Assembly: GCA_031282525.1 (NCBI GenBank)
Contig: JAITDN010000003.1
Span: forward strand, 310,001-374,000
DNA: 64,000 nt
Reading direction: 5' to 3'
Source: Candidatus Endomicrobiellum basalitermitum
GTDB taxonomy: Bacteria > Elusimicrobiota > Endomicrobiia > Endomicrobiales > Endomicrobiaceae
This document shows, one piece after another, positions 37,123-41,933 of this stretch. A model generated the notes under the pieces. The model was not told the DNA's origin. It ran no database searches and saw nothing but the letters and a program-made list of their open reading frames with translations. The position numbers and the translations under genes were made by a program. Positions within the stretch are counted from its first letter, which is position 1. Each line of letters starts with the position of its first letter.

Positions 37123-38013
37123 ATGAAATATATAAAAAAATTTAACTACACTGATGTTCTAGGCTGGTCTATCTCAAGATATGAAAAATTTTTAAACTGC
37201 AAAAGACAATACTTTTACGATTATTATGCAAAGTTTGACAAAGAAATGCCTCTTGAGAAAATACAATTCTTAAAAAGTTTAACTTCTAAACCATTAGAAA
37301 TTGGGAACATTACACACGATATTATAAGAGATATGCTTAAAAGATACCAAAAAAGTACAAAACCACTAAATAAAGACAAGTTTTTTGAGTATTCTTTCAA
37401 AATGACGGAAAAATATTGTTGTTCAAAAACTTTTTTTGAACATTACTATAATGGTGAGATCACACTACCATCTAAAATCTATGTGAAAGTTAAAAGAATA
37501 TTAGAAAATCTTCTTAACAACTCAAGATTTATATGGATTGAAAAAAATGCTGTACCACAAAGTTCTGAATGGATCATAGAACCTGACAGTTTTGGAGAGT
37601 TCAGAATAAAAAATTACAAAGCATTTTGTAAAGTGGATTTTCTATTTCCTATTCTTGACAAAATATATATCATGGATTGGAAAACAGGAAAACCATATGA
37701 AAAAAAACATTTAAAACAACTTACCGGATACACACTCTGGGCAAATTATCACTTCAATAAAAAAGCCAGTGACATTATACCTATTGTAGTCTACCTTCAT
37801 CCTCAATATAAAGAAAAAAATGTTAAAATTGATGATAACTCGATTTTAGAATTTGAAAACGTAGTAATAGACGAGACAAAAAATATGTATGAATATCTTG
37901 TTGATATAGAAAAAAACATTCCTAAAGACAAAAAAGAATTCCCCTTTACAAATAATATAGCTTTATGTAAATATTGTAACTATAAAGAAATATGTTTCGC
38001 TTCCAAACTTTAA
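37123..38013 (+). CDS. RecB/Cas4-like PD-(D/E)XK nuclease with Fe-S cysteines
   Basis: The 296-residue protein is a free-standing nuclease domain of the AddB/RecB/Cas4 type. The N-terminus SISRYEKFLNC gives the first cysteine (26) in the usual S-x-S-R-x-x-x-F-x-x-C setting. GNITHDIIRDML holds the early histidine. The catalytic core is CKVDFLF (Asp) and DWKTGKP (D-x-K), with QLTGY as the downstream QxxxY motif. The last three cysteines, 282, 285 and 291 (CKYCNYKEIC), complete the 4Fe-4S staple. No helicase is fused and no CRISPR genes are near. It may act in DNA repair, perhaps with the rmuC gene downstream. Confidence 0.87.
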   Translation: MKYIKKFNYTDVLGWSISRYEKFLNCKRQYFYDYYAKFDKEMPLEKIQFLKSLTSKPLEIGNITHDIIRDMLKRYQKSTKPLNKDKFFEYSFKMTEKYCCSKTFFEHYYNGEITLPSKIYVKVKRILENLLNNSRFIWIEKNAVPQSSEWIIEPDSFGEFRIKNYKAFCKVDFLFPILDKIYIMDWKTGKPYEKKHLKQLTGYTLWANYHFNKKASDIIPIVVYLHPQYKEKNVKIDDNSILEFENVVIDETKNMYEYLVDIEKNIPKDKKEFPFTNNIALCKYCNYKEICFASKL

Positions 38014-38414
38014 GAACATTTTAAATCACAAATTTTAATTTTTTAATACAAGCCCCCCCCTTTTATAATCTATAAACTTTGTTACACTCTTAAAAATGGA
38101 AAAATTATATAGTCCACAACTTGAATTGCCAGTTGTTAAATAACCATTAAAATCTCTCACTCAAAACGCAAATGATTCATAGACTGCAGTAAATACTTTC
38201 TCAGTCACACCCACATTTCATTTTTCTCTTTACAATAACCGTTATCTCCAAATAGTTTTAACAAATGTAATCATCAACAACACAACCTTTAAGTTCTTCC
38301 TTGTATAAATTAACTTATATTTTAAATTTAAAGAATCTTAAAAAAAATTCAAATATAAATCAAAATTTGAAAGGAAAGTTAGTTTTTATGTAGAATTTTT
38401 TAAAGAGGTCACTT
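38014..38414. other. Gene-free stretch with a C8 run
   Basis: No intact gene. A run of eight C at 38053-38060 resembles the runs found in broken genes of this window. A minus-strand reading near 38100-38200 (VTEKVFTAVYESFAF, RDFNGYLTTGNSSCG) hints at decayed coding sequence, but I cannot identify it. Confidence 0.35.
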
Positions 38415-39590
38415 ATGAATATAATAATTTCAGTTTTATTGTTTTTGTTCGGAATAACACTAGGAATTTGCTTATCTATATATAGATATATATTTGTGAC
38501 AAAAGACAACGCGACAAAAGAACAAAAAATAAAAAATTTAACTGAACAAATTGAAAAACAGTCAAAACTTAACGAAAATTTAAAAATAGAATTTGAAAAC
38601 ATCGCTTCAAAAGTATTAGAAGAAAAAAATACACAAATTACAAATTTAAATAAAAACTCTTTGGAAAATATTGTAACCCCTTTTAAAGTAAAAATAGACG
38701 AATTTAGAAGTAAGATTGAAAATCTCCAAATCTATGAAGCTGAGAAAATGTCAGAATTGCAGAAAGAGTTAGAGAAGTTGACAAGTCTTAATAAAAATAT
38801 AAGTGAAGAAGCGAGCAATCTCGCCAAAGCTTTAAAAGGCGAAAATAAAATTCAAGGGATATGGGGAGAATTAGGTATTGAAAGAATTTTTGAATATGTA
38901 GGAATGGTTAAAGGCGTGAACTATACATCTCAGAAACAATTTAAAAGTGACGACGATAAGAAAATTCCGGACTATATAGTAAACTTACCAGATAAAAAAC
39001 ATATTATAATAGATGCTAAAACTTCATTTGTAGCTTATGAAAAATATTATAGCTCACGAGATGAGTCTGATAAAAAAAACTATTTAAAACAACACTCCGC
39101 AAGCATAAAAAGACATATTGATGACCTTGTTTCAAAAGATTACGCAAATTTACCAAAACTAAACCAACCTGAATATATTTTGATGTTTGTGTCCATAGAA
39201 GGAGCGGTTTCACTTGCGATAAAAGACAACCCCGATCTTATTGCTTACGCTTTTAAAAAAAACATAGTAATTACAACTCCATCAACGCTTTTAGCTACTT
39301 TAAAAACTATTGAATACATATGGCGTCAGGAATATCAGAAAAAAAATGTACTTGAAATAGCGAAACAAGGGGGAAGTCTTTACGATAAATTCGCTACATT
39401 TGTTCAAATTTTAATAGAAGCTGACAAAAAAATATCGGAAGCAAAAAATAAAACACAAGAAGCTATAAAGAGACTTCAATCATCCGATAAAAAGGGCGAT
39501 AGTCTTATAGAAAGAGCACAAAAATTAAAAGAACTTGGGGCTTCTACAAAAAAAGAAATACCAGAAGAAATCTTAAAACATATAGAATAA
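38415..39590 (+). CDS. rmuC: RmuC-family DNA recombination protein
   Basis: RmuC limits inversions at short inverted repeats and is a predicted restriction-like nuclease. The 391 residues show an N-terminal membrane helix (about 3-22), a long coiled coil (about 38-135, rich in K/E/L/N), then the nuclease core: GIWGELGIERIFEYVGM near 157, DYIVNLPDKKHIIIDAKTSF with the catalytic D ... D-A-K, and KRHIDDLVSKDYANLP, the family signature. PEYILMFVSIEGAVSLA and TPSTLLATLKTIEYIWRQE complete it. Starts 29 bases before the RNase H gene, so probably cotranscribed. Confidence 0.94.
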   Translation: MNIIISVLLFLFGITLGICLSIYRYIFVTKDNATKEQKIKNLTEQIEKQSKLNENLKIEFENIASKVLEEKNTQITNLNKNSLENIVTPFKVKIDEFRSKIENLQIYEAEKMSELQKELEKLTSLNKNISEEASNLAKALKGENKIQGIWGELGIERIFEYVGMVKGVNYTSQKQFKSDDDKKIPDYIVNLPDKKHIIIDAKTSFVAYEKYYSSRDESDKKNYLKQHSASIKRHIDDLVSKDYANLPKLNQPEYILMFVSIEGAVSLAIKDNPDLIAYAFKKNIVITTPSTLLATLKTIEYIWRQEYQKKNVLEIAKQGGSLYDKFATFVQILIEADKKISEAKNKTQEAIKRLQSSDKKGDSLIERAQKLKELGASTKKEIPEEILKHIE

Positions 39591-39619
39591 ATAACACAGA
39601 CAATTTTAAGGAAGATAAA

Positions 39620-40306
39620 ATGTTATGTAAAAAAGAACTCCAAAATAAAATTCTAGAGTTACAAAATATACTTAAAAAACAAAATATAAATTTGTTCTTT
39701 GATAACACTTCTTTTAAAGATTATTTCGTTAAACTTATAATTTCTGTAAATAATAAGTACTGTGGAAGTATTTTGATTTATTATAAACCTACAAGAAATA
39801 CCTACTCTATAAAAAAACAACTATACAATCCTGAAATTGACACAGTTATAGACTCAGCGTGGAATAAAATAAATCATTTTGAGACTTACTCAGCAGAAAG
39901 TAATATCTATGAAGCTTTTGTGGACGGCTCATATATTGCAGGTATTACGAGTTATGGTACAGTTATTTATTTGGGAAATGAGATAAAAGCTGAAATTTCA
40001 GGCACTGTTTCAAATACACAATTTAGGCAATTCGGAGGAGAGTTAAAATCGGTCATTGAAACAATAAAATGGTGTCAGAACAATAGCGTAAAAAAAATAA
40101 GAATTAATTATGACTATCAAGGCATAGAAAAATTTGCATCCGGTGAATGGAAAGCAAAAAATGTTCTTTCAAAAGAATATGCAAATTTCATCTTAAAAAC
40201 AAAAATAGAAATTGAATGGAGACACATAAAAAGTCACACCGGGAACCCTAAAAACAACAGAGCCGACTCTTTGGCACAAAAAGCCGCAACGAAAAAAAAC
40301 AAATAA
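39620..40306 (+). CDS. RNase H type-1 domain protein with unknown N-terminal domain
   Basis: The C-terminal two thirds of this 228-residue protein is an RNase HI fold. The four catalytic acids can be read: D in AFVDGSY (about 101), E in FGGELKSV (about 139), D in NYDYQGI (about 164) and D in NNRADSLAQ (about 217), with H in KSHTGNP as the flap histidine. Such enzymes cut RNA in RNA/DNA hybrids. Residues 1-90 match nothing I know; they are mixed alpha/beta and basic, possibly a nucleic-acid-binding module. rmuC ends 29 bases upstream. The other possibility is a chromosomal RNase HI under another name. Confidence 0.87.
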   Translation: MLCKKELQNKILELQNILKKQNINLFFDNTSFKDYFVKLIISVNNKYCGSILIYYKPTRNTYSIKKQLYNPEIDTVIDSAWNKINHFETYSAESNIYEAFVDGSYIAGITSYGTVIYLGNEIKAEISGTVSNTQFRQFGGELKSVIETIKWCQNNSVKKIRINYDYQGIEKFASGEWKAKNVLSKEYANFILKTKIEIEWRHIKSHTGNPKNNRADSLAQKAATKKNK

Positions 40307-40820
40307 TTCATAACTTTTATCACTATTAAAATTGACTTAAATTACAAAATTTGTATACAATATGCAGAGTGTAAGTATAAATTTACATTAAATTTTTTCT
40401 AGAGTATGTTCTTAGCTATTAGAAAAAAGAATAATTCCTATTATTTTTTAATTCTACAATTCTTGTAAACTTACAGGTTTTTAGGTTCTTAGTGCTATGG
40501 TTATTACAATAAATACAAAGAACTTTTGAAAATCAGCTAAGGGGAGTTTATATCTTAATATTATTGCCTATTCCTAAAAAAGAAAATATTTTAGATGGAA
40601 AAGATATTTTAACGCAGTTTATGATTGCGATTATGATCTAGACATAACGTATTTATCTAAATTATTTATTCAACTGTTCCATACGCTAAGAATATTTAAA
40701 ATCATACGAAAGTTAATAAACAAAAAGTTCTCACTTAAAAGAAAAATTTAAACAATAATAGTAGGTAAGTATTGAGAGTTTTGACATAAATTCAGCTAAA
40801 TTATAAAAGGAGTAATTAAA
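40307..40820 (+). other. Gene-free stretch holding a promoter
   Basis: No intact gene. A promoter lies at its left end (next entry). The region between it and the pyruvate kinase start (about 450 bases) has short stops in all frames. A faint plus-strand piece (LPIPKKENILDGKDIL, then YDLDITYLSKLFIQLF) suggests decayed coding sequence. A small RNA or long leader is also possible. Confidence 0.4.
40332..40361 (+). promoter_or_regulatory. Strong sigma-70-like promoter
   Basis: TTGACT at 40332-40337 and TACAAT at 40356-40361 with an 18-base spacer (or TATACA at 40354 with 16). The next gene starts 460 bases further on, so the product could be a long leader or a separate RNA. Confidence 0.55.
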
Positions 40821-41933
40821 GTGAGTAAGACAGGAATTGTTTGTACAATGGGCCCTTCAACACGTTCCCTTAAAACTTTAAAAAGAATGGCAGATAACGG
40901 GATGACAGTAGTTAGACTTAATTTTTCACACGGTACTTACGAAGAATATGAAAAAGATTTTGACTTGATAAAAACTCTAAACAAGAAATACAAAAAACAC
41001 ATAAAAACTCTTGTAGACCTTGAAGGTCACAGAATAAGAATTGGTAAAATAAAAGATGGGAAAACTGAAATAAAAAAAGGGCAACAATTAATTCTTACAA
41101 ACAAAGGAAAAGAAATCATAGGCGATGATAAAAAGATTTTTATAGACTATCTAAATCCGCTCAGTGATATCAAAAAAGGATTAGATATATTTATAGATGA
41201 CGGCAATCTTACACTTAAAGTTTTATCCTCAACAAATGACGAACTTATCACTGAAGTTCAAATGGATTATATTCTAAAGGCACATAAGGGTGTAAATATC
41301 CCACAAGCTGATCTTAAATTTCCGTTAATGGAAGAAAAAGATCGAGAAGGAATGGTTTACGCACTAGAATCTAACGCAGATTTTGTTGCAAATTCTTTTG
41401 TCCGAGATCGCTCTGATATGGAACCATTAATAGATATCTTAAAATCAAAAAATAATAAAAACTGCAGACTCATTGCAAAAATTGAAGATAAAATGGGGAT
41501 TTACAACATTGAATCTATCTTTAAAGTATGTGACGGAATAATGGTTGCAAGAGGTGATATGGGAATTTCAATTCCCATATGGACAGTTCCTATAGTACAA
41601 AAGCATATAGTAAAAAAATGTATGGCGCAAAAAAAATTCGTAATAATTGCAACACAGATGCTTGAAAGTATGGTTGAAAATCCAATACCGACAAGAGCTG
41701 AGGTAAGTGATGTTGCAAATGCTGTCATAGACGGAACTGACTACGTTATGCTCTCTGCGGAAACAGCTGTAGGGCAGTATCCAGATAAAGTTGTAGAGGT
41801 GATGGGCAATATAATAAAGTTCACGGAGAAAAATTATTATATTATCCAGCATCCAGATAAAGTTGTAGAAGTGATGGACAATATAATAAAACATACAGAG
41901 AAAAATAATTATATTGTATCTAAACAAAGTTAG
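40821..41933 (+). CDS. pyk: Pyruvate kinase, short form with duplicated C-terminus
   Basis: Converts PEP and ADP to pyruvate and ATP. GTG start nine bases after AAGGAG. CTMGPSTRS, RLNFSHGTYEEY, IAKIEDKMGI (catalytic Lys and Glu), MVARGDMGI, IATQMLESM, PTRAEVSDVANAV and MLSAETAVGQYP are standard. The T-K-G-P-E-I-R loop reads LEGHRIR, a clear departure. The protein has 370 residues against ~470-480: the allosteric C-terminal domain is missing. In its place residues 320-343 (YPDKVVEVMGNIIKFTEKN...) are repeated as 344-367, a 72-base tandem duplication (41779-41850 and 41851-41922). It probably still has the catalytic barrel and B domain; loss of function is possible. Confidence 0.88.
   Translation: MSKTGIVCTMGPSTRSLKTLKRMADNGMTVVRLNFSHGTYEEYEKDFDLIKTLNKKYKKHIKTLVDLEGHRIRIGKIKDGKTEIKKGQQLILTNKGKEIIGDDKKIFIDYLNPLSDIKKGLDIFIDDGNLTLKVLSSTNDELITEVQMDYILKAHKGVNIPQADLKFPLMEEKDREGMVYALESNADFVANSFVRDRSDMEPLIDILKSKNNKNCRLIAKIEDKMGIYNIESIFKVCDGIMVARGDMGISIPIWTVPIVQKHIVKKCMAQKKFVIIATQMLESMVENPIPTRAEVSDVANAVIDGTDYVMLSAETAVGQYPDKVVEVMGNIIKFTEKNYYIIQHPDKVVEVMDNIIKHTEKNNYIVSKQS

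What the first reader, a model, noticed from the sequence alone, without database searches (positions are those of the whole stretch)
37123..40306. Three-nuclease cluster: Fe-S PD-(D/E)XK nuclease, RmuC, RNase H
A Cas4/RecB-like Fe-S nuclease, the RmuC DNA-metabolism protein and an RNase H with an unknown N-terminal domain lie in a row on one strand; the last two are only 29 bases apart. Together they could process R-loops, stalled forks or foreign DNA. I know no described system with this trio, and it is kept intact in a genome that sheds genes. This is my best candidate for a new functional unit in the window.
Basis: inference. Interest (0 to 1): 0.6.

Follow-up and report, generated by a model that had tools for sequence, protein, structure and literature searches.

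The report
Ordinary DNA-upkeep gene neighbours
Three genes that look like DNA- and RNA/DNA-hybrid-cutting maintenance enzymes really do sit in a row in this termite-gut endosymbiont, but in its relatives they separate, get lost one at a time or have a sensor-kinase gene between them, so they are best read as inherited neighbours rather than a new three-part system.

Summary
The three genes are real and at the stated coordinates: a PD-(D/E)XK nuclease with four Fe-S-type cysteines (NUC), RmuC, and an RNase HI with an undescribed N-terminal domain (RNH). All are under purifying selection. Within the genus the order is kept in 34 of 34 genomes with all three on one contig; RmuC-RNH are almost always within 72 bp. 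The "new functional unit" reading is not supported. Four of ten other genera of the family have a ~1010-aa sensor histidine kinase directly after NUC. One species has NUC-kinase-RNH with RmuC gone, one genus has NUC touching RNH without RmuC, one keeps NUC alone at the locus, three have NUC beside recA and RNH behind queDCE genes. One close relative keeps RmuC-RNH beside a wrecked NUC. The 401-base gap holds a promoter-like element conserved in two close relatives. RNH is the only RNase HI found; AddAB, RecA and RNase HII sit elsewhere. No Argonaute or reverse transcriptase was found in the genus. Best reading: an inherited neighbourhood, rmuC-rnhA one transcription unit, NUC separate. The RNase H N-terminal domain (no Pfam match; only this family within the phylum) is mildly new.

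The parts
37123..38013 (+). NUC: stand-alone RecB/Cas4-type PD-(D/E)XK nuclease with four Fe-S-type cysteines (C26, C282, C285, C291)
   Evidence: dN/dS 0.15-0.19 versus close relatives
38014..38414 (+). gap at the position of a ~1010-aa PAS/HisKA/HATPase sensor kinase in relatives; no remnant detectable in the window itself
38367..38396 (+). promoter-like element TTGAAA-N18-TAGAAT upstream of rmuC
   Evidence: 10 of 12 matches; region as a whole hardly enriched: 30 found, 23.8 +/- 5.1 in shuffles; conserved in L032 and L054, degenerate in L034, absent in L033
38415..39590 (+). RmuC: hydrophobic N-terminal segment (by eye), coiled coil, PD-(D/E)XK domain (D186, D200, K202)
   Evidence: dN/dS 0.06-0.09 versus close relatives
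39620..40306 (+). RNH: RNase HI, catalytic domain about residues 96-225, undescribed N-terminal domain residues 1-90; only RNase HI found in the assembly
   Evidence: N-terminal domain without Pfam match

Best explanation
A family-specific chromosomal neighbourhood of three separately acting DNA-maintenance genes. rmuC and the RNase HI gene probably form one short transcription unit (29-base spacing, ribosome-binding sites, promoter-like element in front of rmuC). NUC is the end of the upstream gene group and became their close neighbour because the sensor-kinase gene once between them was lost. Likely jobs: NUC trims DNA ends or flaps like other stand-alone RecB/Cas4-type Fe-S nucleases; RmuC limits rearrangements at inverted repeats as a membrane-anchored nuclease; RNH is the cell's RNase HI and removes RNA from RNA/DNA hybrids (R-loops, primers), its N-terminal domain probably helping substrate binding. 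Shown: families, catalytic residues, selection, synteny and its exceptions. Inferred: transcription unit, kinase loss in this exact lineage, biochemical roles.
For: Families and catalytic residues. Only RNase HI found in the assembly beside one RNase HII. Kinase directly after NUC in genera g3, g4, g6, g11 and in genus members L036 and L048; decaying remnants at the same place in L037, L042, L044, L045, L049, L050, L051, L052. NUC-RmuC distance varies 37-3255 bases while RmuC-RNH is 14-72 bases in 33 of 36. Promoter-like element upstream of rmuC. Separations and single losses: G057 lacks the local RmuC, G051 NUC is wrecked, g9 NUC touches RNH with RmuC elsewhere, g2 has CLS-NUC without the other two, g8 has all three apart, g10/g12/g13 have NUC next to recA and RNH behind queDCE. 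AddAB-like pair and RecA elsewhere in the genome.
Against: Inside the genus the trio's order is kept in 34 of 34 contiguous genomes although the gene downstream of RNH is of 15 kinds among 29 loci, even in 0.2-0.5 Mb assemblies, which could mean functional coupling. No kinase remnant was found in the window's own gap. Promoter calls in DNA of 28% GC are weak by themselves.
Confidence: 0.75

Rival explanations
1. Functional trio: NUC, RmuC and RNH act together on R-loops, stalled forks or recombination intermediates.
For: Order kept in 34 of 34 contiguous genus genomes despite shuffled downstream flanks; all three are nucleic-acid enzymes under purifying selection; NUC-RNH adjacency also occurs in g9 without RmuC.
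Against: Each member is separately lost or relocated in relatives that keep the others; in several genera an unrelated sensor kinase sits in the row; RNH sits with queDCE and NUC with recA in other genera; promoter-like element inside the gap.
Confidence: 0.12
2. Anti-phage or anti-plasmid defence cassette (Shield, DRT or Argonaute/Cas4-like).
For: PADLOC profile RTasRmuC hits RmuC (E 1.3e-101) and Aga_Cas4-like_Nuc hits NUC (E 9.6e-16); the best PDB fold match of the weak NUC model is an Argonaute-associated Cas4-family protein, 9iac, E 2.8e-3; ShdA shows RmuC domains can be used in defence (PMC10270631).
Against: No Piwi and no reverse transcriptase in any of 42 genus genomes, so the profile hits are general family matches; the Shield paper reports Shield only in Pseudomonas and sets it apart from housekeeping RmuC; the genes are present in nearly all genus members, not a patchy island.
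Confidence: 0.04
3. Pure coincidence: no coupling at all, not even rmuC-rnhA cotranscription.
For: Variable gaps between NUC and RmuC; separations in other genera.
Against: rmuC-rnhA spacing is 14-72 bases in 33 of 36 genus genomes, and the two are adjacent also in G055 (g3), g6 and g11.
Confidence: 0.09

Closest known systems
E. coli RmuC / PF02646 (COG1322)
   Same: Central PD-(D/E)XK domain with the D-(x)n-D-x-K residues and coiled coil; Pfam E 5.9e-92
   Different: 391 aa against about 475 aa in E. coli; genus members G054 and G033 carry in-frame duplications in the coiled coil
RNase HI, RNase-H/viroplasmin-family type (e.g. PDB 2kq2)
   Same: Catalytic domain and all five catalytic residues
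   Different: N-terminal domain of about 90 residues has no Pfam match; within the phylum this architecture was found only in the window's family
Stand-alone RecB/Cas4-type Fe-S nucleases (PF12705)
   Same: Motifs and C-x(n)-CxxC-x5-C cysteines
   Different: Cas4 profile below cut-off (20.3 bits against 22.7); no Argonaute in the genus; no CRISPR genes among the immediate neighbours
Shield (ShdA)
   Same: Uses an RmuC domain
   Different: Reported only from Pseudomonas and in defence islands (PMC10270631); ShdA sequences were not compared here

Membership tests
RmuC (PF02646) | Profile match above the curated cut-off | tested here: met
   308.3 bits against 26
RmuC (PF02646) | PD-(D/E)XK motif | tested here: met
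   D186, D200, K202 invariant in 44 sequences; motif described in PMC1189080
RNase HI | D-E-D-D plus His catalytic residues and fold | tested here: met
   D102, E141, D165, H206, D216 invariant in 24; fold match E 4e-9
RNase HI | RNA/DNA hybrid cleavage | not testable with these tools
   Needs an enzyme assay
RecB/Cas4-type Fe-S PD-(D/E)XK nuclease | Profile match and four cluster cysteines | tested here: met
   56.6 bits against 22; C26/C282/C285/C291 invariant in 25
CRISPR Cas4 | Match above a Cas4 cut-off | tested here: not met
   20.3 against 22.7 bits; TIGR00372 17.8 against 65
Argonaute-associated Cas4 nuclease | Argonaute gene nearby or in the genome | tested here: not met
   No Piwi match in 42 genus genomes
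DRT with RmuC | Reverse transcriptase gene | tested here: not met
   No RVT_1 match in 42 genus genomes
Shield | ShdA-type RmuC protein in a defence island | tested here: inconclusive
   Neighbours are CLS, pyruvate kinase and a ZIP transporter, not defence genes; the ShdA sequence itself was not compared

The most novel reading that the evidence does not exclude
In this family, rmuC and a family-specific RNase HI with a new hybrid-binding N-terminal domain act as a coupled module on R-loops or recombination intermediates (perhaps after natural DNA uptake), with NUC as an accessory end-processing nuclease.
Probability: 0.1. Interest if true: 0.5.

Novelty: new member of a known kind. Interest (0 to 1): 0.18.

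Why it matters
If ordinary, it is a clear example of how gene loss brings unrelated upkeep genes together, so that a reduced genome can look as if it carried a new cassette. The undescribed RNase H N-terminal domain and the persistence of RmuC and RNH in assemblies of only 0.2-0.5 Mb are the points worth a later look.

Tried and rejected
Kinase remnant in the window's own gap: searched with tblastn and with a kinase profile in six frames, none found. RNase H C-terminal extension in genus g4 as a second copy of the N-terminal domain: looked similar by eye, but profile comparison gave 1.4% probability, so not claimed. N-terminal domain as a double-stranded-RNA-binding domain: the predicted order of helices and strands resembles one, but no Pfam match and the fold search was swamped by the catalytic domain; left as a guess. 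NUC fold: model weak (mean pLDDT 68), so its fold matches are not relied on. RmuC frame breaks suspected in G054 and G033 turned out to be in-frame duplications, not decay. PDB sequence hits for NUC (PCNA) and RmuC (adiponectin) look spurious. Viral contigs: one distant NUC relative, 26% identity. Rfam: nothing in 35-43 kb. Papers linking RmuC with R-loops, or RmuC with RNase H in an operon: none in the library.

Full report
What is there. The window lies in a 719 kb, 84% complete assembly. Its closest named relatives for rmuC are 'Candidatus Endomicrobiellum' species (87% identity to Ca. E. glyptotermitis), which from general knowledge are endosymbionts of termite gut flagellates. Three ORFs are present exactly as described, at 37123-38013, 38415-39590 and 39620-40306, all on the + strand. 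Pfam assigns PDDEXK_1, RmuC and RNase_H. Catalytic residues are invariant across orthologs, and dN/dS against three close relatives is 0.15-0.19 (NUC), 0.06-0.09 (RmuC) and 0.18-0.25 (RNH). All three genes are therefore real and selected.

How conserved is the arrangement. Searches of 96 genomes of the class were tabulated. In the genus, NUC, RmuC and RNH were found in 37, 38 and 38 of 42 genomes; the four that lack all three are 52-75% complete. In 34 genomes all three lie on one contig, always in the same order and strand. RmuC-RNH spacing is 14-72 bases in 33 of 36; NUC-RmuC spacing runs from 37 to 3255 bases. The gene downstream of RNH is of 15 kinds among 29 loci, while the gene upstream of NUC is the cardiolipin synthase (CLS) in 20 of 31. 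So there is genuine conservation of order inside the genus, strongest for rmuC-rnhA.

Why this is not evidence for a new unit. Neighbourhoods from ten other genera of the family show how the row probably came about. In g3, g4, g6 and g11 a protein of about 1010 aa (886 aa in g6) follows NUC. Two copies scanned are sensor histidine kinases (HATPase_c, HisKA and PAS domains). The gene is intact in genus members L036 and L048 and decaying in L037, L042, L044, L045, L049, L050, L051 and L052. In the window no remnant is left, so loss there is inferred from relatives. The members also part company. G057, 99% complete, has NUC-kinase-RNH with no local RmuC. In g9 NUC overlaps RNH and RmuC is elsewhere. 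In g2 NUC stays by CLS without the other two. In g8 all three are apart. In g10, g12 and g13 NUC sits beside recA, and RNH behind genes that read as queD, queC and queE (named from the sequences, no profile run). In G051, a genus member, NUC has lost about 95 residues and is broken by frame shifts while RmuC and RNH are intact.

Promoter. The 401-base gap is unalignable between close relatives except for its last hundred bases. There TTGAAA-N18-TAGAAT (38367-38396) is present in the window, L032 and L054, with a degenerate form in L034, and absent in L033. Promoter-like sites are only slightly more frequent than in shuffles of this AT-rich DNA, so the conservation, not the match, is the argument.

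Function. RNH is the only RNase HI found in the assembly and there is one RNase HII, so an ordinary RNase HI role is the simplest reading. RmuC was predicted to be a nuclease limiting inversions at short inverted repeats (PMC1189080). NUC is a stand-alone RecB/Cas4-type nuclease; the genome also has RecA, a UvrD, and an AddA-like helicase (1020 aa) next to a 933-aa AddB-like protein with its own PDDEXK_1 domain, plus a third small PDDEXK_1 gene. Published work reports expressed competence and recombination genes in Endomicrobium (PMC8809381), a plausible setting for such enzymes, but no link to this cluster was tested. Membership in defence systems was tested where possible: no Argonaute and no reverse transcriptase in 42 genus genomes, Cas4 profiles below cut-off.

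The N-terminal domain of RNH. AlphaFold gives a confident model (mean pLDDT 88; N-terminal blocks 84-95) with the order helix, four strands, helix. No Pfam family matches it, and in 248 genomes of the phylum the two-domain protein occurs only in this family. It resembles a double-stranded-RNA-binding fold in the order of elements only; this could not be tested further.

Verdict. The interpretation as a new functional unit is not supported; rmuC-rnhA as a transcription unit is likely. The finding is mostly ordinary.

Noticed in passing
window 40821-41933: Pyruvate kinase consisting of the barrel domain only, with no C-terminal PK domain match; the window copy ends in an in-frame repeat (HPDKVVEVM..NIIK.TEKN). 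Relatives have about 340-362 aa.
   Followed up: partly
window 40307-40820: The 514-base stretch between RNH and pyruvate kinase is 71-72% identical to L033 and L054 over about 450 bases, with no long open frame on the + strand and no Rfam match; decayed gene or leader unknown.
   Followed up: partly
L089, L108, L109, L111: RNase H of genus g4 carries a C-terminal extension of about 95 residues; resemblance to the N-terminal domain was not supported by profile comparison.
   Followed up: yes
L104 10666-12171 and L040 10001-11293: In-frame duplications within the RmuC coiled coil in G054 and G033.
   Followed up: no
L088 6094-8590 and 12893-13627: A family of hydrophobic, membrane-protein-like sequences (about 200-280 aa) on the opposite strand, several copies lying between NUC and RNH in g3/g4 genomes.
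   Followed up: no
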